Shown piece by piece: positions 16,006-60,598 of a DNA stretch of 64,000 nucleotides (positions are counted from its first letter, which is position 1; every line of letters starts with the position of its first letter). The DNA is from Batrachochytrium dendrobatidis JAM81. Its lineage: Eukaryota > Chytridiomycota > Chytridiomycetes > Rhizophydiales. The stretch covers positions 656,888-720,887 of the forward strand of contig NW_006281111.1 of NCBI RefSeq assembly GCF_000203795.2, written 5' to 3'. The position numbers and the translations under genes are program-made. The notes under the pieces are model-generated. The model did no database searches. It was not told the DNA's origin and was given only the letters and a program-made list of their open reading frames with translations.

Positions 16006-16497
16006 TGTTGGATTACTTTCTATCAGTAACTGATTTAGGAATTAAATAAACTATAATTGCTTTGGTATCGACTAAAAAATGGTGTTGATTCGAATGCAAA
16101 CTAACAGCCTAGTTGGCTGGTTTTTTGGTGATTGGCATGTCGAGTTGCATTTCTAAAATGTGCAATCAGTTTTTTGGACTATAATATAGACACGGATTTT
16201 TAGGATACAATAAAAAGGTTGGTAGCAGTCAAACCCAATATTTGGATTGTAATGGACAGCATATGCAGATCGCGCAATGCATGACTACCAAAAGTGGAGA
16301 AAACCAAGTTCAAAACTATAGTTTGATGTTGTGTTTGAAAGAATTGAGAGAGAAATCCATCTCATTAGAAAAGCACAAGTATTTAACCATTATTTATTCC
16401 AAAGCAAAATAGAGTCAGTCAATGCAAGATAAATACAAAGTGTTCCATTTTACGTGAATACGGCTGTAATTCATCTTGTCCAAGCCAGTCGAAAAGA
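16006..16497. other. Convergent intergenic region MAP1 - TIM23
   Basis: This 492-bp spacer between two 3' ends has no coding signal. Its right part (16380-16467) is one end of the dispersed MITE-like repeat, ending about 30 bp from the TIM23 stop. The remainder is AT-rich sequence in which I recognise nothing. Confidence 0.6.
16380..16467 (-). mobile_element. MITE-like repeat, partial copy (minus orientation)
   Basis: The segment starts TATTTAACCATTATTTATTCC and ends CATTTTACGTGAATACGGCTG. It closely matches 58121-58210 and is the reverse complement of the left ends of the plus-oriented copies. The other terminus is not recognisable. Confidence 0.65.
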
Positions 16498-27005: not shown

Positions 27006-29380
27006 AAAGGCAGGTACCGCTTGGAAGTGCAAACTTCAAGCACGCGTAAAAATAGTGAGTTTGGTCCACTCAATATATGAAATCGACAGTATATTGTAAA
27101 GCCCCATCTGGTTAATTAGATGTGTTTGATACATGATTCAACCCCATATACCACAATCATTTGACTTGCAAGCTGATTGATCTAGTCAACTCTTGAACCA
27201 TACTCTACCACTGATGCAGGATATCAATAGATTGCCCCTTGCAATAGAGTTAATCGATCATAACGACTTGGAAATCTGACGAATACAATAGTGGCGCTTT
27301 GGACATTAGCGGAAACAACAGATGCCGTTCTTGCTAGAATACTGTATATCGTTTGTCCATATTCTGGAATCAGTATTTTGGATAAATGTTCATTGAAACA
27401 TGGTCCCATATTGATACTCTACTCTCTTTTGTAATATAGCCGATCTAGGTATTTGCATTGATATCCAGTGATGAGGTTTGATTCATGCAGGCTCTTTTTT
27501 TTGGATACACTCCTTTGGTATATGCGGCTTGATTTAATTCCGAAACGGCCTAGTCTAACCACTCGTTGCATGCCATAATATAGTCATGTAATAATGGTCC
27601 AATGACTCGAGTTTAGCCCTGACTCCCTATTAATCTGTCAAATGTCATGATGCAGTTCGGAATGAAGCCGGTTCCGAAAAGTGACACTGCAGGGTTGCTG
27701 TTCTAATGAGCTTATTTGACGCCTTCACTCCCTACTTTCTATAATTTTTTCATTGGTCTTCCCCACTATGAAACACATTTGAACCACCGCTAAACAAAAA
27801 GCGCAGCAAGAGAAGGGATCCAGATCCAGATGCAGTGTAGGCTTTGAGATATCTTGGCGCAAATGTCTTGCAGCTTTTATCAACGCAGCCATGGCCCTTT
27901 AGTTTGGTATAGGCTTGCTGAAAAAATATGCAAGTATCCATACGTCTGTCAATACATCTGCTTTCAAAATGCATTTGTCGCGTTTGGTTTATCTTGTGCT
28001 CCAAGGGCAATCAAGATGGACATGGAGAAAAAGTATGGTTGGCAAGAAACAATTCTTGGTGAAATGAGTGGACAAGTGAGTAGAACTGCAGCATCTTGTG
28101 GATCACCACATGCCTGTTTCATGGTTGAGTGTATGAACTCACAAAAGGACGTGTGTATCAACATGATCAATCAACACATGTGCATCAAGAAGAAAGCAGG
28201 TCAGTGGATCATCAACCAAACGCTTGTTGAGTACCAGTATAAAGTGCACCTTTTTCCAACTGGATGCTAGTATCATGATGGGATGATGGCTAGATATGAA
28301 TATATGGCATTCGTGGACGTTGAAGCAAACGACAACTCGAGCCAAAAACGTCCAATAGCGTTTGTTGCTTACAAACGTGAATGGTTGTTTGCGCTTTTAA
28401 AGCGTCTACACGTTATGCAGGTTAATGCTGAACAAAAACAAGCAACGACCGCTCTTGTGGGCGGTAACACTTGCACAAGATCTCAAATACAGAATAGCGA
28501 TGCACAATGTGTTTCCGATTACTGACAACATTCCTGGCCACATCATGTGCACCAGAGCAGCTGATGCTCACGCGTGGACGGACTATCTAGACAAGTTTGG
28601 TATAACAGGATTGCTTAAAATCCGCGCATCTATACGACTGGGTGCAGCTGTTTGGCCAATTGCCTTGATTTTGAAAAAAACAGCAAACTGATTCTGTAAA
28701 TGTATGTTTACGCAACAAGTAACAACAGATTAGGTGTTGTCCTGTCTGTTTGAAACATCCGTCAAAGGGTAAAACAACTGCTTCAATACCTTCCATGCAG
28801 TACGTTACATGTCAACAGCAAGTCGCTTGAGTAAATGGATAGTGCCACTATAGTCATGTTTGTCGAACCAGACTAAATCAACACATATGTGAAATGCTTT
28901 TCAATGTATCAGTTGCGAAATATAGTGGACAGTAGACACTCAAATATGGTTGACTCGATCAACAACAGTTGGACAAACCATTTTCCAGCCTTTTGATAAT
29001 CGCAACATTCATGGCAAGTATAGATCTAGAGTATTGAAAGCGCGTTTATCAGAGTCGATCTTGGCATCACCAAGGAAAAGGCTTACATTTGCAAAACAAA
29101 ACACTCGGTTGCGTAGCCGTTTGCAACAAGTGGAACTGTTGTACCGTGAAACTGCTGGGCTGATTGAGACATTTGACAGCTGCATTGCCATCACTCAACA
29201 ATAGTCTGAAAACGTTGTTCATTTCTTCCACATGACGCAAAATAATCGACTGAAGGCAATTAATGCACCTTTTCCTATAACGACCTATGCAAGAACGTAC
29301 TGGAAAATCGCCTCGATACGTCAAGTGCGTGCAAAACAACGAATGTTCCATCAAACCCTCGGTCAATTACTGATATTTCA

Positions 29381-29803
29381 CAGTCGTATTCACGTAAAAT
29401 GAAACACTATCTTGTGGTGATTGCTTCAGATTATACAATGGTTAAATGACTGTTGTTTTCTCACTACAAATTCACTGGGATAGAAAGTCTGGGCTCAATA
29501 AACACAACCAATCTATAACTTTAAACTGGAATTATTCATTTTTTAGTAGTCATGCATTGTACACTACCAGATTCATTGATTGCAATCCAGATATTGAATT
29601 CGACTTTAAATCTGTACAAATTCGTGCATTTAAAACTTGATACGCTCGCACTTCAAGACTGCATGTTTTAGAAATGCAACCATACACACCAATCACTCAA
29701 TGTTTACTTGTAGGAAAGGATATGGACTGGGAATGTGGTGTGAATATCACTTTAAACATTCGGCTAGTTTTTATCCAGTGTTTTATTTTACATGAATACG
29801 GCG
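29381..29803 (+). mobile_element. MITE-like repeat, about 420-bp copy upstream of PAN6
   Basis: The left terminus is CAGTCGTATTCACGTAAAATG and the right terminus TTTTACATGAATACGGCGG. The internal part shares short blocks with the copies at 38622 and 41474 (for example AGTCATGCATTGTAC and CCAGATATTGAA). The right end is 175 bp before the PAN6 start. Confidence 0.75.
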
Positions 29804-45430: not shown

Positions 45431-47122
45431 ATTGGACGTTTTAAAACAAGAGTGACTGATAATGAAAGACAGCTATGTACTTAAAAAGTAATGTATGTAT
45501 GGTGGAAGAATCTACGAGCTTAAAAAGCTAAAAAGGTGTAAAGACAATAAATAGTTGAACTGGGGATTGGAAGCCTGAAGCGGTATGCAGAGAGAATTAT
45601 CCACCGGGTTTATATACAAATCGATCAGGAAGTATAGACTACACAAAATTACACCTCTATAAGCATTACCGTACAAAGTGGTGCGCAGCATCAACAATCA
45701 ACAACGCGATAATCAAGCCTATTCACATTTATTTGAAGAGCAGACTAATCAGCCACCATAAAACTTGGGCTTGAAGCATTGACCCCTACTCATCAATATC
45801 ATACAAAGGTGCAAAACATTACTTTGGAAACTACAAGGCCACCACTCTCAAGTGCCGCATTTTCAAAAAATCGAGGTTGTAAAGGCTTTTGAAGTTTATT
45901 TATATTATGATGGCACCAAGATTCATGTCATCATTGATAATCTATTTGAATATATCGGTGTAGATACTAAACATAGACACAACTGCTATACTAACAAAAC
46001 AAGCGTTTTAGGAAATCGGTTTAAAAAGTTTGTATACTTGTAGCAGCTACTCAAGTGGCTGAAGTTTATTCAACAGCCGTATTCACGTAAAATGAAACAT
46101 GAGTTTATCTTGCAATTGGAGCCTCTTGCTTCAAAATAGACAAGGACTGAATATTCGTTGTTTCCTACTAGAAATGGATTGCCTTTTCAATAAACATTTC
46201 CAATTATCTGTGTCTGGAGTTCAAACGAATTTATTTTTTATTATACTCGAGTTATTTTTAGTAGGGTTCAAGAATCGATAGTATTAGAGTTCTAATCCTC
46301 ATGCTGCTTGTTGAATAGTTGGTAAACCATGTCCAATTAGAGTTGTCTTGTTGAGTGAGATGGCAGTTTGGAAATGATGCATGCCGTCTAGAAGGTTAAT
46401 ATTGCAGCATTGACAGTTTCCTTGAACAGCGATTGTCATGAATCATACACTACTAGACTATAGTTTTAAACTGCTTAAACTGCACTTTTTCTCTTGTTTG
46501 AATAGCCATATATTGTCCAGTAAATCCGACACCAATTAAACATGACTGGTTGTTTATCATGTATTTTATCCTTTTTGATTAGTGTTGCATTTTACTAAAT
46601 ACGGTTATCATACCATGCAAAATTTGATATTCAAAATACAATTTCGAATATTCATACACTTGAAAATATCTTGTGCTGCAACTATACAAAACACGGCAAA
46701 ATTTTGAATAGTCGACTATTGAGAATTGGGCAAGAGTTTATAACCAACTTTTGAAATTACGTACAAACTACTGTTTAATCAGCCAAAATAGCTTTAATTT
46801 TTTTAGTTCAAACCTATTCAGATTCAAACTTGGTGATCGCGTAATACATGGTTATGCCAAGTGAGGTCAATCTCAGATTCAAAACTAGAGTTTGATTGTG
46901 TGTATCATATGGATGCTGTAGGTTAAAGAATTGTGTTTATTAAAGTCAATTTGTAATAAAAAAGTGCAACGAATGTTTAAACTCTTAAACATCACATTTG
47001 CAGTTGTATTCATGTAAAGTGCAACGCTTGTAGTTTATTTTGTACTAATTTTATTTTGCTTTGAAATAAATAATATCGACATTTTTAAAATACATTGGGC
47101 TTGGAAATAACAATGGGTATCA
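45431..47122. other. Gene-poor 1.7-kb spacer between secreted-protein genes, with a MITE-like copy
   Basis: It holds a 530-bp MITE-like copy (46074-46606). A further isolated terminus-like sequence (GTATTCATGTAAAGTGCAAC) lies near 47003. No convincing coding sequence is visible on either strand. Confidence 0.5.
46074..46606 (+). mobile_element. MITE-like repeat, about 530-bp copy
   Basis: The left terminus is CAGCCGTATTCACGTAAAATG and the right GCATTTTACTAAATACGG. It includes the blocks TATCTTGCAATTG, GACTGAATATTCGTTG and TGTTTATCATGTATTTT seen in other copies. Confidence 0.72.
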
Positions 47123-47689
47123 TTAGACACCCCCAAAGATTCCACCTAGACCACCGCCACCTTTACCCCCAAAGATTCCACCTAGACCACCGCCATCTTT
47201 ACCCCCAAAGATTCCACCAATGGTATCGATTATCTTTTTTCCAGTTTTTGAAGGAGATGAGTCGGTATTCCCATCGGTTGGAGCGGGAGTGTCGCCGGTA
47301 CCATCACCGGTAGAAGCTGGATCAACATTTCCATCGGCTGGAGCGGGAGTGTCGCCGGTACCATCACCGGTAGAAGCTGGATCAGCATTTCCATCTGTAT
47401 TTGGATCAGCGTTACCAACACCATCACCACTAGCGGGATCAGCCTCGATGCCTTTACCGCCTTTTTTTCCAATCTTGTCGATAATGGTTTTGACTCCACT
47501 GAAAATGTCCCCAATGCTAAAGTTGTTCTTGGGTTCAGCTGTAGCATTGCTATCGTCCGACGCATCGCCCTTGTCAGCAATAGACCGCTTACTTAGTTTG
47601 AGAGTAGACAATGGATCGGTTGATGGAATAACAGCAGCAGTGGCTGCTGCCACAAACGTACATACAGTTGCAAGAATGTAAAGTTTCAT
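47123..47689 (-). CDS. Predicted secreted protein with dibasic site, acidic repeats and Gly-rich amphipathic tail (188 aa)
   Basis: ATG at 47689. A signal peptide (YILATVCTFVAAATAAV) and a KLSKRS dibasic processing site begin it. Then comes a segment with FSIGDIFSGVKTIIDKIGKK. Two 20-residue repeats of the form ADPASTGDGTGDTPAP..DG follow. The C-terminus has IIDTIGGIFGGK and two GGGLGGIFGG units. The tail alternates Gly with Leu/Ile/Phe, which suggests an aggregating or membrane-active peptide; that is inference. No known domain. The dibasic site resembles propeptide processing by Kex2-type proteases. Together with 42173-43390 and 45203-45430 it makes three secreted, repetitive proteins on the same strand. 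Confidence 0.7.
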   Translation of the reverse strand: MKLYILATVCTFVAAATAAVIPSTDPLSTLKLSKRSIADKGDASDDSNATAEPKNNFSIGDIFSGVKTIIDKIGKKGGKGIEADPASGDGVGNADPNTDGNADPASTGDGTGDTPAPADGNVDPASTGDGTGDTPAPTDGNTDSSPSKTGKKIIDTIGGIFGGKDGGGLGGIFGGKGGGGLGGIFGGV

Positions 47690-49242
47690 GGAGAATGAAT
47701 GTTTTTGAAAATATTACTGCTAAATATGTGCAAAGGTACAAAGGTTGAGTTATTTTTGAGCTGGGTAGATTGGGAAATTCATTTGAATTTATATCCAGAA
47801 AGTGGCTTAGGTATAGCAGGTTGAATGAAATGTATCAGATCGATGGCGGGGTTTCCTGTTTTTGAAAATCAAATACATTGCACTTGAATGTGTGGCAATC
47901 ACGGTAAACTCGAGTTTGGTTTCATGTTCAAGTGGCAATTTCATTTGTCAAGCATGAGAATTTCTGACGTTTCAAAATGTCGTAGCAGTTCATCAACATT
48001 ATAATTAAATTCAAAGATACTTGCATAAACCAAGGCTGGTGTTGGAGTGCATCAGCTGTTTTGCAATTACGATTTTTGATACAATTATTCACAATAAACT
48101 CATTGCCTCCATCATGCAGCTTGGTTTTACAGTTGACGACAAAGGGCGTGAAAATGAAAAAGTATTTATTTCAACCCACCTTCATTGTGTTTTGAAAACA
48201 TTCTAATGGCATCAAACAAGCAGCTGTTGCAGCATTTTGAAAACAAAAGTTTTTGGTTGGTAAAGTTTCACGATCGTTTTTGGTTAGCGTAGACTATATA
48301 GGCGGAATGCCAATATATCAAGAATTGTGATATGGTTTCAATAAACCAGCAACAACTGAACAAATGACATTGCAATGATTATTCATAGAACAAGGCAATC
48401 AAACGACAATGTTAGCGACAATTATGTTGGACAATATTCATGATTCAAATATCGACAGTCAAACATTGGTTAACCAACAGTTGTACGATTATACAACTGA
48501 CCCGTGTATTGACAAGTGATCAACATCGATCCGGTCATGGTTGAAACAGTGTATCACAGGACTTGAAAGTTGACAGTATTGCTGTGGTGTAATATTAGCA
48601 ACTACGCACAACTTGACATGAATACAATGTTGATGTTGAGACTGTCAATGTATTACAATGTATTGGTCAACAGTGACTGAGATCAATGACAATATTGCAG
48701 TCGATCCAATCCAATTGTTGATTGGAACAATCATTATTCACTTGTCAGATTCAGCATGTAAATGCATGTTTTGTAACATATTTACTAATCCAACAATTGA
48801 CTGATTAACAATAATTGAATATTAAAATGTTGAATAAAAGACTCGAGTCATTATATGAATGACGTAATCAATTGTCGAGTTGAATTGACACTCGATTGAA
48901 CAATACAAATAAACACATGACAAATGTTTAATTTGATTTTAATTTCACACAAAATTGCTTAATTTAAGCACTTCAAAATGTGAATTTGAATACATGACAA
49001 ATTAATACAATTTGACAGTTTTAATTTCACAAAAATGCTTAATTTGACAGTTTTAATTTCACACAAAATTGCTTAATTTAAACAATATTCAGTGTGTGAA
49101 TTTGTTTCACATGACATTAAATTTTGGATTTAAAGTCGAATTTTTTCCTTTCTTTTCTTCATTACATTTCATTCCACTCTATTCTATTACATTTCCTTTT
49201 GCTCTTTCTTCTACTCTATTCCTTTCTCTTCAGTAAACTCTA
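47690..49242. promoter_or_regulatory. AT-rich region upstream of the Crinkler gene with repeated 30-nt unit and pyrimidine-rich leader
   Basis: No gene is seen. From about 48400 the sequence is rich in TTGACA/TGTCAA words. Three copies of a 27-30-nt unit (TTTTAATTTCAC...GCTTAATTT) lie at 48937-48966, 49019-49045 and 49051-49080. A strongly pyrimidine-rich strand (TTTCCTTTCTTTTC...) follows from 49141 to 49232, ending in CTTCAG just before the CRN start. That end could be a 5'UTR intron acceptor. Confidence 0.5.
48937..49080. repeat. Triplicated 27-30-nt unit upstream of Crinkler
   Basis: Units at 48937-48966 and 49051-49080 are identical over 30 nt. The middle one (49019-49045) differs by a short deletion. 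The units at 49019 and 49051 are each preceded by TTTGACAG. Confidence 0.8.
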
Positions 49243-51552
49243 ATGGAAAACATACCATTCTACATTCAATACCTCCACAACCAGCCAGTGAAAATTGAAA
49301 CCCACTTCAATGGAGAACTAGAAAGAAGAAGGCCACTGACTGACGTTGGTGGCCTGGTTGCAGCAGTCAAACAAGCACTTCCATCGAAACTTGGTGCTAT
49401 AGACCCTGACGAGCTCACCATCCATTATGTGGTGAATGGGGTGGAGACCAACTACAACTCCTGGGACCCCATTGCTGCTCTCGGAACAAATGGGACTGTT
49501 GGGTCCAGTCCACTCATCATTAAATCACGCAGTGGTACCGGGCAAGGCGTCGCTAGCTCAGTGCCAGGAGCTCCAGTAGGTTCGAATACCGGAATGGTTT
49601 CAGGAACATTTGAAGAAACTGCAGATACCGAAACCACTGTGTCACTTTTAAAGTATCATCACATTGCCGATTCTTTAAAAGATGACAACTGTGTTGTGCA
49701 AATTGTAAAAATTATCCTTGCAGTCACAGCTGGAGAATTTTCGGGGTCAAGCTTCAAAAATTTACCGTTTACATTTCTCGAGGGCTCATCTGGCTCAGGA
49801 AAGAGTCAGATGGGCTTTAATATCAAAGCCAATATTGGTGATCGGAGGAGAGTGCATTATCTCCTGTTCGATCCTCCCGGTTCGACATCACAAAGAATCT
49901 ACCGCAACTTTGAAAACATTTCAAAGTTGTTCAGCAAATGTTATGTAGAAGATGAGCAAATGTATAGCCCTGAAGCTTCATCTCCAAGCTGTGGTTCGCT
50001 GTTCAAAGAAAGTCTATATATGTATGGATTTATTTTTGAACTGCTATCCAACAAAATTCAGTCACCCACAGTCAGTATTGGCCCAAAGACTGGCAAAGAT
50101 GTCCAAGAGCTGATGACTTCCAAAGGAATCCATCAACACAGACCAGTGTTTATTCTGGACGAGTGTATTGCTATTTCAGACCAGTCCTTAAAAAAAGTGC
50201 GATTTGTGCGAAATTGCTTCCGCTCATTGGGTCTGGGACTCGTTATGATGGGAACAGATTCCAGAGCAGCCAAACTGCAGCTCAACATTGGAAGCAGCAG
50301 TCGAAGTGCGACTCCAAGACCGTGGTGTCATGTGTTTGGGGAATTTCCAGCAGTAAAACTAGAACTAACAGGATTGCCACAAACACTACCAAGATATCTC
50401 AAATCTATCATACTCAACTCAAGGCCACTTTTTGCGCAGCTTGTCGCAGAAGAAATCGCAAACAAGGTTTCAGATTTTGACGAATTGATGAAAGCAGCGT
50501 TTATTAAACTGAAATCAGTCAAAAAGATATTTGGAAATCTTTACGGACAACTTGGACAGGTTCGGCTGCTTCATAACGCTCACTGTCAACTGACCGATTT
50601 GGAAAGCCAATCGACCAATCTGGAAAACCAATCGACTCCATTGATTCACTCACACTTTGCCCAGCTAAATGGAGAAAAAAACTTTATATTGATGAATGAT
50701 GGATGTATTCAAGACCATTCTGCTTCTTGGAGACCGTCTTCGGTGTTTCCAGAGCTAAAGAACGACATTTTGCTTTACCTGCTGTTGATGGGTGGAAAGG
50801 GATTTTCCGCCTGTTATGCAGGGGATGGCAAGCAGGTGCCATATGCACATTTTTTGATGAAAGCCAAGAGTAATCCGGATTATCGCAGCCATATTCTATA
50901 CTTTTCGAATGCTGTACAGGATAGCAATGATGGAATGTTTCTCGAGTCTTTGCTATGTTCGACAGTCTGTTTGGCCTCACATTCTAATGGCGTCAAGGGA
51001 ATTGATCTAAAACCGTTTCTGTTGAATTTGGTATACCAGCTTCAGATTGATAAACCTGATTCCGAAGACGTCTCTATACTCGATCTGAACAAACTCGATG
51101 GCATAAAATTTACTGTACCTTTTCTTTCACCGCCAAACCAAAAGTGGCCCGATTTTGTTCAAATACCTGGTTTGAACTTTGATTGGTTATCAAGAGCTCG
51201 AAACTCGGAAAGTATTGATTTGAAGACTTCCTGTGGACTTTTTGGAGAATCCAAAGATCACAAAGGTGTAATCAGCCTTGAAACAATGGTGAATATCATT
51301 GGTAGGATTCCTGAAGCAGCAAAGGTGGAACTAGTTTTTACACGAAAACTTCAAGATTCGTACTTTAATCCTCCAGCTCCATCGTTTGAAGTTCAATTCC
51401 AAAGAAGCCATGTTCTGAAAAAGGCTTACTACAAGATTGACGCTTCAAAGCCCAAGACTTTGCTTGAACCAATCGAGGGTCTTCCGTGCGACCAGCCTGA
51501 TATGGATGGAGTTGTTATTTTCTTTGAGATCAATGACAAGCTTATTATTTAA
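49243..51552 (+). CDS. Crinkler (CRN) family protein with P-loop NTPase core (769 aa)
   Basis: A single uninterrupted exon, unlike most genes here. Residues 1-100 form a CRN-type header: a ubiquitin-like region (YIQYLHNQPVKIETHF, LVAAVKQALPSKLGAI, DPDELTIHYVVNG), then DPIAALGTNGTVGSSPLIIK, comparable to headers of chytrid CRN proteins. There is no classical signal peptide. A P-loop follows near residue 179-190 (EGSSGSGKSQMGFN) and a Walker B-like strand near 303 (VFILDECI). The central part is a likely NTPase. The last 250 residues hold no motif I recognise. CRNs were described in oomycetes as host-nucleus-targeted effectors and are expanded in Batrachochytrium. Many pair a header with an NTPase and a nuclease domain. 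A host-directed or intragenomic-conflict role is inferred. It stands alone in an AT-rich island. Confidence 0.82.
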   Translation: MENIPFYIQYLHNQPVKIETHFNGELERRRPLTDVGGLVAAVKQALPSKLGAIDPDELTIHYVVNGVETNYNSWDPIAALGTNGTVGSSPLIIKSRSGTGQGVASSVPGAPVGSNTGMVSGTFEETADTETTVSLLKYHHIADSLKDDNCVVQIVKIILAVTAGEFSGSSFKNLPFTFLEGSSGSGKSQMGFNIKANIGDRRRVHYLLFDPPGSTSQRIYRNFENISKLFSKCYVEDEQMYSPEASSPSCGSLFKESLYMYGFIFELLSNKIQSPTVSIGPKTGKDVQELMTSKGIHQHRPVFILDECIAISDQSLKKVRFVRNCFRSLGLGLVMMGTDSRAAKLQLNIGSSSRSATPRPWCHVFGEFPAVKLELTGLPQTLPRYLKSIILNSRPLFAQLVAEEIANKVSDFDELMKAAFIKLKSVKKIFGNLYGQLGQVRLLHNAHCQLTDLESQSTNLENQSTPLIHSHFAQLNGEKNFILMNDGCIQDHSASWRPSSVFPELKNDILLYLLLMGGKGFSACYAGDGKQVPYAHFLMKAKSNPDYRSHILYFSNAVQDSNDGMFLESLLCSTVCLASHSNGVKGIDLKPFLLNLVYQLQIDKPDSEDVSILDLNKLDGIKFTVPFLSPPNQKWPDFVQIPGLNFDWLSRARNSESIDLKTSCGLFGESKDHKGVISLETMVNIIGRIPEAAKVELVFTRKLQDSYFNPPAPSFEVQFQRSHVLKKAYYKIDASKPKTLLEPIEGLPCDQPDMDGVVIFFEINDKLII

Positions 51553-54500
51553 TGAGCATTGATATTTCCTTCCAATAAATATATTTATTAATTTGTACAA
51601 ATCTATAATAACTCGATCGAATTGAGCAGGTTGTTTTTGGATAAATATCAGTAATGATTACACAATCATTTAACAATCTATCCAGTTTCAAGGATATTGT
51701 TACAATTATGGGCAAGATATACAACAATCCAATCGTGTTCATTGTGTTCATTGTGCTATCGAGTATGAATACTGCACAAAACTATCCATCATTCAAACTA
51801 CAGACTATCCACTGTTGCACCTCGAGACTTTTGTCCATAATGACCCATTTTTGGTAGATTGCTGTTTTTGACAAGCTTGGACAAATCTAATAGTAATTAT
51901 TGGCCAACAAAACTGGTATCATTTGGTGCCTTGTCTACACTGTTATAATTGACAGTTTTGGTGTTTCAAGTAGTGTATATTGAGAACATTGCATTATGGA
52001 ACCATTGCAATGTACGACACAAAGTTGGATGATGTGCGCAATGACGTACATCATATCGGCTATAAATGGATCAATGCATACCTTTGTAATAAATAACCAG
52101 CTTTGTTACTACACCTGTCGAGTCTCTAGTTTCACAATAGTCTTTGATTTCCAACATGAATACCGCTACATTCAAAATGCACAACACGCTTGATATGGAA
52201 CAAAAACAGCACTATTGTTCACGTTGCTACAAGTATATTGGGATCATCATTGAATCACACACTGCTGGTAGCTGTAAATCGGACGACAAAAACACAAACA
52301 GTGATGTTGAACATGATGAGTAAACCTAGTTGTATTGGTTGCTGTTGCACAAAATCAGCTGTTTTTAACAGTACATTTTGAATATCGTAATGTTGATCAA
52401 TCACAAATATATGGGTTTTGATGGGTCCGGTAGATCAATTCAGTGTATAGTAGTGATTAGTGCAATATGATCAATTCAAGCATGCCATGTCGTGTCGTGT
52501 CATTGTATTGGTAATGAATGATGTTATTGAATGGATGAGATTGAATGCAAGATAAATAAGTAAACCATCATGCAATACACGCTGGATTGTAGCATATCCT
52601 ACTCGAGACTGTTGATGGTCCACTTTGAGCTGTAGCAATGTGTCGGGTCTGGTTCAAGAGTTTGTTGTTCGCACCAGAATCTTGAGCAACTGCACCATGC
52701 TCAGATTGTGACAATCATTGAAATACAACATTGTAGAACGAACCGAATCAAACCACTGCATTACCAGTTGATCCGAGATGCATCATATGGTCAAGTTATA
52801 CCAGACTGAACAACATCCAAGTAGTGTTGCTTGAATCCAGTTTTGTAAAACTGATATTTCCAAACCATATTTGTCGCAACCCAAGTGTTTTTGATGTTCA
52901 ATCTCAAGTCGAGTCTTGTGAATCGGACTGGATTGTTGTTGGTTTCCGGTATTCATGCTCTAAATCGGCAAGGTTTTCACTCGCCGAGTTGCCAATTCAT
53001 AATGAACAATAGGTTCAGTCACTGTCAAGTTGAACACTAAACTTGTTATGTTGGCATCATGACCATTTGCTGCGTAATTTGTGATTAAAACATTCCATTC
53101 ACTGAAATTGAACTAGAATTGAACTAGAATTGGACTAGAATCAACTACATATACATCATCTAGATCACCTGGATTAAAATCTGTCAACAGACTGGATCCA
53201 GTATTTGTAGTCACACTGAGTTAGTGTCGCATATACTGAACACACTAACTACAGTGACAGACTATTACAGTAAACAACTAGAGTGTCGTTTTACTGGATC
53301 CAAGCAAGTTGTCATTCAACAGGTAGAGTCTTGTATTGTATTTATGCTATCGAGTACGATCAAAAGCATGCTACTAGTATATCAATAGCACCATACAACA
53401 CCGGCTCATTCAAATGATATTTGTTTGTTCATATAAACTATAAAACTGAATTTCAATTTGAATGGCTGTTGGAATTATCAGCTATAGATTTGCTACGTTT
53501 TGCGACACCGATTCCACAAAAATGACAACTCTGGATCAAACTCGGGTGAAACAACGCAAGAGTTTCTACAAGACTGCACAGATGTGATGACTTTAAATTA
53601 AACAATGAGTTATCATCAAGACTTGGCTATTACAGTGCTGACCAACTCTCACTTTGACTGACTGATCGAGGACCTCCTTTACAACCATACTGCCCATTTC
53701 TTGTTCAAAATACTGGAAATCATCATTTATTCATTACAATTACAGCAACTTGTAATCAACGTCGGATCAAATATCTCACAACTGGAGTCGCCATTGTCTG
53801 AATCGAACTTTAAAATATCCCATTCTAAACAAAAAAGTATGAGAGCAACTCGATCAAATACTTGAAAAGAACAAAGTCAACCCCCACTGATTCAACACTT
53901 GTATGTATGTTTGTTGGAATCAGGTCAAGCCTGTGCTGTAAACTAGTTACATCAATCGTCAAAAACAATCCCAGAAAACAAATTCAATATTTCACACTAT
54001 TTGTCGTTTGCTACAACATGCTTTGGTTCAGTTACATCAGGCAATGAGTCTCGGACTTTATTCGATTGCTCCACTCATCATTTGTCTGTTTTTACCCAAA
54101 ACGGCCAAACACAAGTGGAAAAAGATTGGATGGTGATTTCTTAAAGGTTCATGGTCACTTTGAATGTTTTACATCGCAGAAAGAGTTTATATTACTGAAG
54201 CAAACAAGGATGACATGAGACTGGAAATGTCACAGGACTTGATTGGATGTAAAGTTGCAGCAGAGATTAGTCATTTGAACTCGGTGTATGGAATTGTTAC
54301 AAACTATATGCAGTTGAATTTCTTGCATAGTCTTGATGAAAAGATTGGATTGGACGAGTGAGTTGTGGATATGGATACGACTGGACCTAGTACAGATTAT
54401 CTTGTCGATATCACTGCCAAAATCTATACAATATTATCTGATGAATGACATGGAGTTGATAAGTATATTGGGCTACAGACAAACAAGTACCAATGTTTTG

Positions 54501-56344
54501 ACTAAACTGATATTGAAGGATGCTCTTGTTTTAATTTTGCCATTTCTATCTGAGCGTTGCAACAATGGAAAATGTGTAATATTACAACTGTAATGTCTGG
54601 ACAACTGACTGTCTGAATAACAGTAACTATTTCCAGTGATGCTGATTTGTAAAAACTCGAATTATTCAACAACACTCCATCAATGCATTTGCAAGAGTCA
54701 TTGGACGTATCTGTTGTTTGAAAGTTGATTCTCATACATTCAGAAGTGGAAGTTATGAAGCTTATTTCCATGCAGACACGATCAATGTATTACTTTTTGT
54801 TGGATAGACTGTATCATCTGTCATCAATTCAGACACACTTGTCAGTCCTGTTCCGTATACAATGAGTCACATATGGATACATATGGACACCAATGCAATA
54901 ATCAAGAATCAATTGTCATTTACAAGTCCGAATTGACAACCAACAATCGTACTAATGGACCAACGGACCAATGCCAAAACACCTGCACATCAGACAGTTT
55001 ATTGGACATGACTTGATTGTTCTTGAAACTGTTTGAAAACTGATTGATGACTCGAGTAATCCAATCACACATTGCTGGCAATTAAATGGAACTATACAAT
55101 GTGTCATGTATACATTGGATACCATCAGTTTATCAGTGACTATCTGGTGTTTGTTTATGCATGATTACTTGGACTACTATTTGCAATCAATGCAATCACT
55201 GGTGTCAATGACTGATAACAATGAAACCAAACGATTGACCACATCATATTATACACATTCATTCTGGAATGCAACTTTGCATCGATATTGTAAATATCAA
55301 CCAGAATCCGAGCCAAACGAGTCAAGCGAGTGTCGCAAGCTTGCATTCATTTGAAAATACTCGATATCAGGCTAAAGTTGCATGTGAAATGGTCATTTGT
55401 ACAAGGTTAAACAACATCGACATTTACAATCAATGTGATGTTGGAACAGAGCTGCTATTTCCGAATTTAAAAGTCCAAATCGTACACATTGTTATCAAGT
55501 CTAATCTACACCCTTCATGCCATACCATGTCATGCTTGATAGTTTCATACACTGCTGCAAGAGTTGTATTGTGTGTATTTCGAGTATTTCCATCACTCCA
55601 TCACACTGTATTGGCTCAAACAACTCGAACAGATTGTCATAATCTGACATGATTCCAAAATAATTGCAATCGGTTATATTTGACATGATCGGATCATTGT
55701 AAACCATCTGATTTCAGTAATTCAAGATTAAACAAGCCAATGTTACTTTTTCCAAATTTGAATCAGCATGTTGTTGTAATATCGTCAATATTGTGAGCAA
55801 CTCTGAGCAGACACTTGGACATTCAGTATCAAGTGATATTGGATACTTTCAAATATGTATCCGGTGATAAATGAGCGGTGATGTGTTTGAAATCAATTTA
55901 CCATTACAAACCATTGTGTATTTGCCAATACACTTGATGGTATCAATGACCACTAATGGATTCAACTCGTATTCCGAATGAGCCATCATGTGGTAACCCA
56001 ATTGTTTAGTATTGGTTGTTATTTGATAATGTCACATTTTGTGTCCTGCCATGAGATTGATTTCATCTGAACATTTGACAACCGTGCAAGAAACATTGAT
56101 TGAACTCGTACAGTTTCATATGCAAGTGCATCAGTAGTGTATCAACCAACGAGACCAATTTTGTTGGTTGATACTCGTTGATACTCACTGGTAACTTGAT
56201 GAAAATGTGCCAAACCATGACTTTTATGACAACACTACAAACTGTACGAGTTTAAAAGATTATTGGTGAATATTGTCCAATTTGATTGTTGACTGCAATT
56301 ATTTTGGTTGGTTCGAGTTTCATTCTTTTGTCAAAAAACATCAA
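51553..56344. other. AT-rich gene-poor island between CRN and HNH genes
   Basis: These 4.8 kb have only short ORFs (under 130 codons), none with recognisable similarity. It is rich in TTGACA/TGTCAA and CAATTGT words, like the DNA upstream of the Crinkler. An 11-bp tandem triplication is at 53106-53138. I see no MITE-like terminus here, in contrast to the gene-rich parts of the window. I cannot tell whether decayed CRN-type genes once lay here. Confidence 0.45.
53106..53138. repeat. 11-bp tandem repeat, three copies
   Basis: AATTGAACTAG repeated three times, the last with one substitution (AATTGGACTAG). Confidence 0.85.
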
Positions 56345-57367
56345 ATGAATATTGAAACAACAAAGACAGCAACAACACAACTGTTGAATGAATACTACCA
56401 AATCAGCACTCAAGCCATACCAACACAGAGAGTCAAGTCTGAATGGCAGGATGACAACAAACGAGGTTTGTTTTTGGGAATCATCCAAGAGGGAGAAACC
56501 TCACACATCACTCGACTGCACAACCTGCTGACTGCCAACCAATTTGCAGAGCAGCAGGAATTCTCAACCAAGATCCAGTTGGCAGACCCAGAACATCATT
56601 GTACATTCATTGATGACATGTTTGGGTATTACATACTGCCATTCCACAAAGACTACAACGATTCATCCAGCTGCCACACTCCAGTTTCATCAAACCCAAC
56701 ATCAAGAACCAACTCTGCTGATGATCTGGACTATGTTGCAGAAGTGAGTGAGCTACAGCACAAGGACTTGAACAAGGCGGTTGAGAAGAGAGACAGTGTC
56801 TGCTTGTTTTGCTGGGATAAGCTGTCCTTGCAAGGAGCACACATCATATCCCAAAAGAACATTGGAATGGCATACAACGAACCATCCATCTTGCTACGAT
56901 CTGGTTTGACGCAGAAACATCAAATACAGAACGGACTGTTGTTGTGTATCAATTGCCATGACCAATTTGGTAAACTAAAGCAATATGTGGATGTAGTGGA
57001 TGACAAACTGGTGATCAATGATCCAACAAGTGACAAGCACAAGAAGTGGATTGAGACAATTGAAGATTTGAAAGTTATCCGCAGAACAAGGCAAAAGAGA
57101 TGGACTGACAATCGACAAACAGTCGAATCCAACAGTGAAATGACATTGTATTTCATTCACAACAATCCAACTCGACTACCAAACAGGAACGCACTAGAAT
57201 TCCACAAGACAGCATGTCTCATTTGGTGTATTGCTGGTGGTGTAGAATCTGATGATGAATATTGTCCATATGATGATAATGGCTGTACTCCTGTCGATTA
57301 CCAGAGTAAGAATATCGAGAAATGGATGGAATCGAGTACTACCTTGATCATTGAAAATACTCGATAA
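56345..57367 (+). CDS. HNH endonuclease-domain protein (340 aa)
   Basis: ATG at 56345; the open frame extends 24 codons upstream only through a non-ATG start, so a 5' exon is possible. Residues 150-220 hold the nuclease: VCLFCWDKLSLQGAHIISQ, then NGLLLCINCHDQFGKL. The CxxC...GAHII and CxxCHxxF pattern fits HNH_2-type domains common in fungal genomes, with the paired cysteines as structural zinc ligands and His as the catalytic base. The remaining sequence has no recognised domain. The N-terminus lacks a CRN header. The neighbouring CRN gene lies 4.8 kb upstream on the same strand. It may be a self-standing nuclease, a decapitated CRN C-terminal domain, or a remnant of a mobile element. Confidence 0.75.
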   Translation: MNIETTKTATTQLLNEYYQISTQAIPTQRVKSEWQDDNKRGLFLGIIQEGETSHITRLHNLLTANQFAEQQEFSTKIQLADPEHHCTFIDDMFGYYILPFHKDYNDSSSCHTPVSSNPTSRTNSADDLDYVAEVSELQHKDLNKAVEKRDSVCLFCWDKLSLQGAHIISQKNIGMAYNEPSILLRSGLTQKHQIQNGLLLCINCHDQFGKLKQYVDVVDDKLVINDPTSDKHKKWIETIEDLKVIRRTRQKRWTDNRQTVESNSEMTLYFIHNNPTRLPNRNALEFHKTACLIWCIAGGVESDDEYCPYDDNGCTPVDYQSKNIEKWMESSTTLIIENTR

Positions 57368-58226
57368 AATTGTGTATTCATTACAAGAGACTGGTTTCTG
57401 TTACAGCAATAGTTGTGTCGAGTCAATGTCATGGTGTAATGGCTTCAAAAAACACCATTTTGATGATCAATACTGCATCAATATGATCGTTTTACAACCG
57501 ATATATTGAAACTTGTTGATATTGAAACCAGTATTGATATTGGTAGTGGATGATGTATAATCAAAAAGAAATTCCATCGGAACGTTCCTTGCTCTCGTTT
57601 GTGATTGTTTTCCGTGGATTGTTCTGGTATTTTATGTAGCTCACTTTCTGCCTTGCACGCATGTAAGCAGCAACCACGAATAGTTGAAACACAGATGGCA
57701 CAAGTCAATACATTCTGATGACATTTGGAATATAACAAGACACAAGTGGTGACCAAAGTTTAATTCACAATCCATGAATGAACACGATCGCGTTGCCGAC
57801 TGGATCAAATAACAACGCAGGTGTTTGGAACATGTCTTGAATACATGAATCGACCAGATTGACAACATACTTGTGTAGTCGATAATCAATGGAATTGACC
57901 AAAACCTTTTGACCCAAAGATTTATAGTTTGAAAGTATTTGGTTACCTCGAATCTTTTGACACATTAATCAATTTATACGTCAAAAGACATTTTTTGAAT
58001 TCCAATAAACCTTGCTGAAAATTCTTTGTGTAATAAACAATAATGTCTGTCAAGCAATTCCAACACTGAAAGAACGGAGAATGCACGTCAAAAGCAATGT
58101 CTAGTAGAAAGTACAACAAATATTTAACCATTGTTTATTCCAAAGTAGAATAGACGCAGTCATTGCAAGATAAATACAAAAGTGTCTCATTTTACGTGAA
58201 TAGGGTTGTAGAGTAACCAAAACTAG
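57368..58226. other. Spacer between HNH gene and RabGAP gene
   Basis: No supported gene; overlapping short minus-strand ORFs (57478-58131) lack any signature. The right end (58121-58210) is a partial MITE-like copy that stops 16 bp from the RabGAP stop codon. Confidence 0.5.
58121..58210 (-). mobile_element. MITE-like repeat end adjacent to RabGAP 3' end
   Basis: TATTTAACCATTGTTTATTCC...CATTTTACGTGAATAGGG matches 16380-16467 closely. Only one terminus is visible. Confidence 0.65.
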
Positions 58227-60598
58227 TCAAGCACCTAACGCCTTACGCAAGTTGTCCAACTTTTTTTTCAATTCTTCTTTATCTGTCTCGCTTTGTACCA
58301 GCCGTAATTTTGTATCTGCCAATTGTGCAGTAATATCGTCTAGGTCATCTTGTAGTTCTGCGTTGGCTCTGACCAGATCACTGTTGCGCTCTGCTAATCT
58401 ATTCATCTCGCTACGCACTTCGTTTTCTGCATGTTTTCGGTCAGTTGATAGAATCAGTTTTAGAGCTTTTACTTGTTGCTCCAACTCTTCTTCTCGCTCA
58501 CAGTGTATGTCACGATCACCACTGACATCACCGAGATGGTTGGCAAGATCTACATGTTCTCTATTCAGAATTTCGTAATTAGATTCCAAGACTTTGTACT
58601 CTTCAACAAGTTGGCGATATTGTGATTTGGCATGTTCAGCCTCCATGACTTCTGGAGATTGTTTGTACATCATTTCGTTAAACTCTGTAGTCCATTTATC
58701 TAGTTTAGATTTTGATAGGCGAATGGCAGATGCATCTGCTACAAGTTGGTTGGTGTTTGTGATATATTGATCAAAAAGCCCAGATTTAAGAAACTCGAGA
58801 AGGGGTTCAAAATCAAGCGTGATGATGGTTTCTGCATTGTGTTTGATGAGTGCAACAGCAAAACGAAGGACAGACTCGGGACCTTCTGCAAAAACAATAT
58901 CCAGAATTCTGAATACCATGTCTAGTGGAAATCTATAAGCAAACAGAGTCATAAACCTGTACAAGTTAAAAAAGTAATGGAATACAGAGTTGGGTCATGT
59001 AGTTAGTGGTGCACAAGTAAAATTCAAATGCAAAGCCAACCGAGTTTAAATGTAACTTACCATTGTGAAGCATACATGGTTGACTTGATATCTTGGTTTT
59101 CCAAATGCTTTGCAACAATAGGAAATTGCTCGTCGATAAGTTTATCAAACTGATAGTTTCTCTGCTGCAGTCCAATCATTTTTGGTGAAAACAAATCCCG
59201 AAACCCGTAGTCGCGCATCATTCGAACAAGAACACAGAATGCCTGTTCTTCGGGCATATTCAATAGTAACGGACCAACAACAAACGCGATACCTTGACAG
59301 TATCCAATTTCTTGATCATAAATGGAATAAGCTTTTAAAACATTAAATAAAGAATTTTGACCGGGTCCAGTAGCATCCTTGAAGTGTGGATGATTGGGAA
59401 ATGTTCTGGCAAGATCTCTCTGAATGATCTTTTCATGACGAGTGTGACGAGTAAGAAGCTGCAAGTACTCTTCCTCGAGCATCTCACTCTTGCTACTCGT
59501 CATAAGTTGCCACATCATGCCTCGAATAGGTTCTGGAATTCCTTGATGGAGTCGTTTAGTAAACTGTCTAGGAAACTTGCGCAGTTGACCCTCGTAGTCG
59601 TTGATGACCTTTCCCCAAAAGTCCCAGTCAATACCATGTTCATCTACAGTAGTCGAGGGTTCTTTTGAGCCCAAGACCGAATCCTTGACAGAAGCAAAAC
59701 TCATTTGAACATGAGTACTAAGCCAATGAGCAGCAGCTTGATGTGATCTAGCTAGCGAAGCAGCAGCAGCACTGACTGTTCCACTGCTTGTGTTGGGCAA
59801 GACTTGAGTGTGATGGTGGATTGGACTCAAATTGACATCAGTGGATGGCTGTCGTGAGTGATGAGCAAGTCTAGCCAACAACATTTCATCTTCTTCATCC
59901 TCAGCATTCATCTGAATATCAGTGGATGCAACAGAAGCCGAGCCAGACACAGAGTCGATACGATTCATTCTTTGTGGTCCAGCCGCTGCAGAAGAATTTC
60001 CTACAAGAGATGCAGACGAATCATCAAAGGAATTGATACTGGCAGTTGAACTACTGGATATGGATCTAAACACATATGAAGATAGACTGGCACCAACTGT
60101 AGATGGATTGCTCTGAGTAGAATTTAAATTGCTGCCATCACCACCAGTTAAAAAGGAAGAGAATAGCGATGATGCAGCCATAGTAGTAGGAGATGAATCT
60201 GAATCAGCAACGACTTGGTTGCCATTATGAACTGTGGAAGCGCTTAAACCACTAACGCCTCTTATACTATCAAGTGATCCAACGTAACGTATGGCTTTTT
60301 CTACCCCATTGGCAAAAGATGAAGCAGCGCTTACAGCAGTGTTATTCATAGTATGATTAATAGAAACATTGGCGGCATTATTGGTAGTAACATTGGTGAC
60401 AGTAGGAGAAACGGGAGAGAGTTCGCTTGGAATGTTCGTTACTGCTGGATTCAAAGGTTTGGCTATCAGGAATGCATTGTGTTCATGAATGCTGCTGTAT
60501 ACAGTATGAGATCCAATGCTAGAACCAGTAGTAGGCGATGAAGGATGTGTAGAACGTTTCTTTTTAAACTGCAGTTTTTGTGGAGTAGTCGATGACAT
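58227..60598 (-). CDS. TBC-domain Rab GTPase-activating protein with C-terminal coiled coil (755 aa; Gyp5/Evi5-like)
   Basis: Exons 60598-59061 and 58956-58227 join in phase inside the TBC domain (YASQ-W-FMTLFAYRFP). The first 340 residues are Ser/Asn/Thr-rich and unstructured. The TBC domain spans about 345-560 with IPEPIRGMMWQLM, the arginine-finger motif IIQRDLARTFPNHP and the glutamine-finger motif GYCQGIAF, so both catalytic fingers are intact. From about 600 to the end a charged heptad-rich segment (EELEQQVKALKLIL, LAERNSDLVRANAELQDDL) forms a coiled coil. TBC plus C-terminal coiled coil resembles yeast Gyp5 and animal Evi5, which act on Rab proteins of the secretory and recycling pathways. 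The exact Rab target cannot be read from sequence. Confidence 0.92.

What the first reader, a model, noticed from the sequence alone, without database searches (positions are those of the whole stretch)
49243..57367. AT-rich island carrying a Crinkler with NTPase core and, downstream, an HNH nuclease
The sequence shows a CRN-type header joined to a P-loop NTPase (GSSGSGKSQ, ILDEC) in one uninterrupted exon. An HNH_2-like nuclease lies 4.8 kb further on the same strand. Both sit in a 10-kb AT-rich stretch with no MITE-like copies and no housekeeping genes, while every neighbouring block is dense and intron-rich. Known CRN effectors often combine header, NTPase and nuclease in one protein. Here the NTPase and nuclease are separate genes. 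They could be a split two-component system, or two independent arrivals; the grouping is inference.
Basis: partly seen in the sequence, partly recalled or inferred. Interest (0 to 1): 0.75.

Follow-up and report, generated by a model that had tools for sequence, protein, structure and literature searches.

The report
Nuclease genes paired with Crinkler genes
In a frog-killing chytrid fungus, HNH nuclease genes are often found back-to-back with genes of the Crinkler effector family, and the pair appears to have been copied as a unit whose effector half is reshuffled at a fixed point, which hints at where this gene family's diversity comes from.

Summary
Window 49243-51552 is one open frame with a Batrachochytrium dendrobatidis (Bd) type-2 CRN header and a STAND/AAA+-like NTPase. 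Window 56345-57367 is an intact HNH_2 gene. The 'split NTPase plus nuclease' idea is not supported: the CRN has its own conserved D...ExK C-terminus, and HNH genes also pair with other CRN C-termini.

The grouping is still more than chance. Of 38 merged HNH places in this genome, 10 lie within 1 kb of a type-2 CRN header, all 10 head-to-head and seven with a 369-376 bp gap; none lies within 6 kb of 53 type-1 headers (nearest 7.8 kb). Between head-to-head loci of two C-terminal classes, similarity runs from HNH through the intergenic DNA and stops at the end of the CRN header in 12 of 12 comparisons. The window carries the two halves of that intergenic region 7 kb apart, inside a 9.6-kb duplicated block. 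CRN headers are three-block mosaics.

Best reading: a duplicated HNH-CRN-header cassette reshaped by ectopic recombination. Whether the nuclease drives it is open. The places are partly duplicates of each other, 20 of 38 have no type-2 header within 7 kb, and no relative's genome could be searched.

The parts
48311..57903 (+). 9.6-kb duplicated block holding the CRN and the HNH gene; in C21 the same parts form a tandem array with a period of about 11.4 kb
   Evidence: Edges of similarity to C21, C6, C31 and C12 copies; array period from coordinates
48864..49242 (+). CRN-side half of the HNH-CRN head-to-head intergenic region, here without an HNH gene upstream
   Evidence: Matches the CRN side of head-to-head loci up to their junction with the HNH-side half
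49243..51552 (+). CRN gene, 769 aa, one exon
   Evidence: ten further places cover query residues 6-586 or more at 83-94% identity
49243..49530 (+). CRN type-2 header (residues 1-96), a three-block mosaic (1-36, 38-62, 66-96)
49627..50970 (+). STAND/AAA+-like NTPase (residues 129-576)
51073..51549 (+). C-terminal domain with conserved D659...E669-x-K671, PD-(D/E)XK-like (inference)
   Evidence: D 36/37, E 37/39, K 36/38 non-gap rows; strands and helix in the model; not folded or searched alone
51553..56134 (.). Spacer of the duplicated block; 52469-56039 is 97.8% identical to C15, where a type-1 CRN gene follows instead of HNH
56135..56344 (+). HNH-side half of the head-to-head intergenic region, with an 11-bp inverted repeat near its 5' end in the window copy
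   Evidence: Shared boundary at 56133-56135 with several different flanks; three copies (L018, L019, L022) start elsewhere; sequence
56345..57367 (+). HNH_2 nuclease gene, 340 aa, one exon
57370..57416 (+). 47-bp 3' tail, near-invariant, found in this genome only behind HNH genes
   Evidence: 28 places at up to 3 mismatches (18 exact), each directly behind an HNH match; 0 in the reversed-pattern control
57417..57903 (+). Downstream flank A, near full length behind HNH at 9 places; the other 19 tails are followed by flank B

Best explanation
The pair belongs to a recurrent gene association in Bd. An HNH_2 nuclease gene and a type-2 CRN header stand head-to-head over a shared ~370-bp intergenic region, and this cassette has been copied around the genome as a unit. 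Ectopic recombination or gene conversion then replaces what lies beyond the header's end, so one cassette comes to head different CRN C-termini, and also swaps blocks inside the header. The window holds a rearranged tandem form: the CRN keeps its half of the intergenic region, the HNH keeps the other half, and the two lie inside a duplicated block. Each protein is probably made separately. The CRN would be a stand-alone header-NTPase-nuclease protein; the HNH protein would be a DNA-cutting enzyme that selection maintains. Shown: linkage, orientation, shared intergenic DNA, breakpoints at the header end, mosaic headers, purifying selection on intact HNH copies, intact catalytic motifs. Inferred: that recombination between dispersed copies is the process, shared regulation, and any activity of either protein.
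For: Linkage: 10 of 38 HNH places within 1 kb of one of 76 type-2 headers (about 1% expected per place), all 10 head-to-head; 16 of 38 within 6 kb; 0 of 38 within 6 kb of 53 type-1 headers. 17 of 76 type-2 against 0 of 53 type-1 headers have HNH within 6 kb, Fisher P 8e-5. The intergenic DNA of seven head-to-head loci is 93-98% identical. In 12 of 12 comparisons between two C-terminal classes, similarity from HNH through the header stops 285-293 bp after the CRN start. Header mosaic: 18 of 136 pairs of 17 headers have one block >=95% and another <=70% identical in DNA; 0 of 500 codon shuffles reach the observed unevenness. HNH dN/dS median 0.35 (0.29-0.64) over 36 pairs of 9 intact copies. Window halves begin at 48864 and 56135.
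Confidence: 0.6

Rival explanations
1. Passive hitchhiking: one HNH gene landed beside a type-2 CRN long ago and repeat-rich segmental duplication multiplied the neighbourhood, with no functional tie between the two genes. (It overlaps the best explanation, which is silent on a functional tie.)
For: The intergenic DNA is 93-98% identical among seven loci; C21 holds a tandem array; 20 of 38 HNH places lie more than 7 kb from a type-2 header.
Against: Several spacings and orientations occur; intact HNH copies keep dN/dS about 0.35; type-1 CRN headers, 53 places, have no HNH within 6 kb.
Confidence: 0.45
2. The HNH protein is itself a host- or rival-directed nuclease, expressed together with the neighbouring CRN from one bidirectional promoter.
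For: Shared intergenic region with a near-fixed gap in seven loci; intact Cys4/HNH residues; a Bd CRN with an HNH-like motif, BdCRN13, is reported to interact with DNA and trigger a DNA-damage response in plants (review passage).
Against: No CRN header on the HNH protein; no expression data for HNH seen; the window copy no longer shares its intergenic region with the CRN.
Confidence: 0.25
3. The HNH gene is a mobile or homing-type element whose cuts bring it and neighbouring DNA to new places.
For: A 5' boundary at 56133-56135 with at least four different flanks; a 47-bp tail identical in the five divergent copies compared with L014, although synonymous divergence from the window copy is 0.46-0.53 for four of them; 28 tails, all behind HNH.
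Against: No terminal inverted repeats or target duplication seen by eye at the window junctions; three copies start elsewhere; only two downstream flanks, A behind 9 and B behind 19 of 28 tails; no full empty site for either (two weak partial matches to A, and one partial copy of B at C1:2580178, lie away from HNH). Gene conversion would also keep tails alike.
Confidence: 0.2
4. Split two-component system: the NTPase of the CRN drives the separate HNH nuclease.
For: The same CRN-to-HNH order, with a header-to-HNH gap of about 6.8 kb, recurs at four places: C5, C4 and twice in C21 (coordinates).
Against: These four look like duplicates of one block; the CRN has its own D...ExK C-terminus; C15 keeps the CRN and spacer without HNH; HNH also pairs with other CRN C-termini.
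Confidence: 0.04

Closest known systems
Bd CRN-like family, type 2 (Farrer 2017, PMC5364385; passages)
   Same: Header fits the published second N-terminal motif; a family of over a hundred genes with long intergenic regions
   Different: HNH is not mentioned in the main text of the five Bd papers searched for the word: PMC5364385, PMC11797018, PMC12204190, PMC3161006, PMC3207900
Crinkler header-NTPase-REase proteins (Zhang 2016, not held; seen only through the review PMC5289972, passages)
   Same: Header, P-loop NTPase and a D...ExK end in one protein; a metagenome protein with a Pfam Crinkler header (P0166) resembles the NTPase (28% identity over 52% of the query, E 1.8e-25)
   Different: Bd header not recognised by PF20147; REase end not proven by fold
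Fragment recombination in Phytophthora sojae CRNs (PMC3726527, passages) and crossover enrichment in Bd CRN-like genes (PMC3744429, passages)
   Same: Exchange of header and C-terminus with a fixed demarcation; short exchanged fragments
   Different: Here the recombined unit includes a linked HNH nuclease gene, and the header itself is built of three exchangeable blocks
HNH-motif CRN13 of Bd and Aphanomyces (review PMC5289972, passages)
   Same: HNH-type nuclease motif among the CRNs of Bd
   Different: There the HNH motif is reported inside the CRN; here HNH is a separate gene without a header

Membership tests
Crinkler (CRN) | Pfam PF20147 Crinkler header | tested here: not met
   No hit at E<=1 in the window protein. 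A 2025 paper also reports PF20147 unsuccessful in Bd (passage). Comparison of header profiles gave probability 5.4%
Bd CRN-like type 2 | Published Bd N-terminal motif (YI[QK]YL; extended form ME..FYI) | tested here: met
   The window protein starts MENIPFYIQYL, which fits the motif quoted
Bd CRN-like type 2 | Header joined to varied C-termini with a break at the header end | tested here: met
CRN header-NTPase-REase | STAND/AAA+ P-loop NTPase | tested here: met
   Walker motifs and fold matches of modest strength
CRN header-NTPase-REase | C-terminal PD-(D/E)XK nuclease fold | tested here: inconclusive
   Conserved D...ExK; the domain was not folded or searched alone; no REase Pfam family among the 20 that matched members of the alignment
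HNH_2 nuclease | Pfam PF13391 above its cut-off | tested here: met
   29.2 bits against 21; 46 of 46 aligned members match at E<=0.1
HNH_2 nuclease | Catalytic H...N...H and four Cys | tested here: met
   H166, N196, C153, C156, C201 in 46/46; C204 and H205 in 45/46; roles of these residues recalled
Mobile element | Terminal repeats, target duplication, empty site | tested here: inconclusive
   A defined 5' edge and tail, but none of the three seen; looked for by eye and
Secreted effector | Secretion and entry into host cells | not testable with these tools
   No signal-peptide program was run; two papers report signal peptides in at most one of the Bd CRNs (passages)

The most novel reading that the evidence does not exclude
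The linked HNH enzyme is a dedicated, endogenous recombination nuclease: by cutting at or near CRN loci it drives gene conversion that swaps header blocks and C-termini, a combinatorial diversity generator for a pathogen's effector family, comparable in logic to endonuclease-driven mating-type switching. It would explain why CRN-like genes stand out in Bd for crossovers.
Probability: 0.15. Interest if true: 0.88.

Novelty: new variant of a known kind. Interest (0 to 1): 0.55.

Why it matters
Farrer et al. 2013 (PMC3744429, passages) found CRN-like genes to be the only Bd gene group significantly enriched for crossovers after correction, in two of three lineages, and asked whether these genes have features that favour recombination. 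A nuclease gene that sits head-to-head with one of the two CRN header types, and has not been found within 6 kb of the other, is a concrete candidate. It makes the question testable with existing crossover maps and assemblies: HNH-linked type-2 CRNs should recombine more than type-1 CRNs. It also gives a first genomic context to an HNH family that the five Bd papers searched for the word do not mention.

Tried and rejected
Split two-component reading: weakened, see rivals. Helitron or terminal-repeat transposon: no matching ends seen by eye. Conserved RNA: no Rfam match at gathering score in 48000-58300. PADLOC: no hit at E<=0.1 for either protein. PHROGs: none for the CRN; for HNH two weak matches (E about 0.009), one of them named HNH endonuclease. 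PDB by sequence: no chain for HNH at E<=1; 42 chains for the CRN at E 0.09-0.98, FlhF, G-protein and caspase entries, taken as chance. Reverse transcriptase as a repeat control gave only 2 matches and was useless, so type-1 CRN headers served as control. dN/dS of CRN paralogues (header 0.43, NTPase 0.52, C-terminus 1.20 in the median) is not used: headers are mosaic, and the C-terminal means (dN 0.23, dS 0.015) look wrong, perhaps one shifted frame.

Rows dropped: of 131 type-2 header matches, the 83 with E up to 8.5e-9 entered the count (76 after merging); 48 weaker ones were left out, a few of which sit in long open frames. Of 54 type-1 rows, 53 entered. One search used 18 genome headers, one of them cut short by a stop (L016), and 14 protein records; one search used 17 genome headers. 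L020, L021 (800-bp gap) and L036 (HNH broken at its start) are outside the 12 comparisons; their similarity to the others breaks at other points, in the intergenic region or inside the header; behind the header, 5 of 8 head-to-head CRN frames have no match to the window CRN at E<=1, three have short chance-level ones (E 0.05-0.95).

Literature searches for an HNH-CRN link: 25 of 40 listed; 10 of 1,509 listed; no listed title or abstract start describes one. Only the passages named were read; the library lacks most subscription papers.
Full report
What the window is. The window lies at C5:656888-720887 of a 23.49-Mb, 33-contig genome.

The HNH gene. 56345-57367 encodes 340 aa with HNH_2 above cut-off. 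The 120 listed of 137 relatives share 42-94% identity over 34-100% of the query and include Bd, Globomyces, Boothiomyces, Gorgonomyces and unnamed metagenome proteins. In this genome 58 matches merge to 38 places, fragments included. Nine intact copies give a median dN/dS of 0.35 over 36 pairs, so the protein is kept. The gene is itself uneven: its first fifth is most alike and its fourth fifth most divergent in most pairs shown (0 of 300 codon shuffles reach the observed unevenness).

Linkage. Of 38 HNH places, 10 are within 1 kb of one of 76 type-2 CRN headers, all head-to-head, with gaps of 313, 369-376 (seven), 800 and 805 bp; 16 are within 6 kb; 0 are within 6 kb of any of 53 type-1 headers, the nearest being 7.8, 8.1 and 9.8 kb away. 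17 of 76 type-2 but 0 of 53 type-1 headers have HNH within 6 kb. Head-to-head orientation in 10 of 10 has P 1e-6 if places were independent, but they are in part duplicates, so the evidence is weaker than that. 20 of 38 HNH places have no type-2 header within 7 kb. They include two inverted HNH-HNH pairs whose spacers share short stretches of about 80% identity with the CRN-side upstream DNA.

Shared DNA and breakpoints. The 368-375 bp between the start codons of seven pairs is 93-98% identical. The seven pairs fall into two C-terminal classes (L032/L033/L035 and L014/L016/L017/L034). In 12 of 12 comparisons between classes the alignment, which covers the whole HNH gene at 91-94% identity, ends 285-293 bp after the CRN start, that is at the end of the header. 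In 9 of 9 comparisons within a class it runs on past the header. So cassette plus header is the unit, and the C-terminus is what changed. Neither class resembles the window CRN behind the header. L020, L021 and L036 break elsewhere.

The window's form. The DNA 5' of the window CRN (48864-49242) is the CRN-side half of that intergenic region, and the DNA 5' of the window HNH (56135-56344) is the other half; each begins at the same junction. Here the two halves are about 7 kb apart in tandem. The block 48311-57903 is flanked by DNA not shared with the copies compared; in C21 the same parts recur with a period of about 11.4 kb (coordinates). The CRN-to-HNH order with a header-to-HNH gap of about 6.8 kb is seen at C5, C4 and twice in C21 (coordinates). 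In C15 a 94% CRN paralogue and a 97.8% identical spacer are followed, after the equivalent of 56039, by a type-1 CRN gene and no HNH; C31 shows the same break.

The 3' tail. 47 bp behind HNH (57370-57416) occur at 28 places with up to 3 mismatches, 18 of them exact, each directly behind an HNH match, and at 0 in the reversed control. It is identical in the five divergent copies compared with L014, though synonymous divergence of four of them from the window copy is 0.46-0.53; downstream flank B is also only 1.4-2.8% diverged. Flank A follows 9 and flank B 19 of the 28 tails. A functional 3' element or gene conversion of the ends would both fit.

Header mosaic. 17 genome headers, cut into blocks 1-36, 38-62 and 66-96 (borders chosen by eye), give 18 of 136 pairs with one block at least 95% and another at most 70% identical in DNA (for example L003/L006: 0.99, 0.53, 0.31; L001/L006: 0.46, 0.97, 0.31; L001/L003: 0.46, 0.52, 1.00). 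The mean range of block identity is 0.316 against 0.102 (maximum 0.165) in 500 codon shuffles. With protein records included, 32 headers show 23 block combinations at a 75% cut, and all three block pairs show four-gamete violations (2, 1 and 3). Fragment exchange is known in P. sojae CRNs, and crossover enrichment in Bd CRN-like genes.

Verdict. The grouping is best read as a rearranged copy of a recurrent HNH-CRN-header unit, not a split NTPase-nuclease. What is shown is duplication, mosaic structure and a breakpoint at the header end; the role of the nuclease in it is a hypothesis.

Noticed in passing
window 46066-46191, 58091-58216, 16343-16468, 29374-29471: A dispersed ~100-120-bp repeat (70-87% identical) occurs at least four times in the window, two copies standing in opposite orientation outside the two ends of the CRN-HNH block.
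   Followed up: partly
window 48303-48310 and L010/L011/L015/L021/L033 behind flank A: The 8 bases CGGAATGC end the unique DNA at the left edge of the duplicated block and also begin the DNA that follows flank A in five other copies; they occur once in the window, both strands counted.
   Followed up: no
window 47123-47689, minus strand: A 188-aa frame with a signal-peptide-like start (by eye) and internal direct repeats beside the block; no Pfam match at E<=1. L039 and L040 hold frames of another family with a signal-peptide-like start.
   Followed up: no
L037, L038, L039, L040: Four places carry DNA from upstream of HNH up to window-equivalent 56280 but no HNH gene; L038:1885-2883 has a 332-aa frame whose N-terminal part looks by eye like another CRN-type header.
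   Followed up: partly
genome C1:3618574/3621058 and C6:94032/96073: Inverted HNH-HNH pairs sharing spacer stretches with the CRN-side upstream DNA.
   Followed up: partly
genome C27:739806, C27:930159-932341, C26:938597, C1:2533799: A 60-65% identical HNH subfamily without the 47-bp tail, two copies in tandem.
   Followed up: no
genome, e.g. C33:1034408, C10:488447, C12:1798461, C21:88688, C11:59248, C1:4378767: Header remnants (query residues 57-100, one TAA each) recur at many places beside an antisense match, as if a header piece had become part of a dispersed repeat.
   Followed up: no
window 58227-60598, minus strand: RabGAP/TBC gene in two open stretches beside the block, an ordinary cellular gene.
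   Followed up: no
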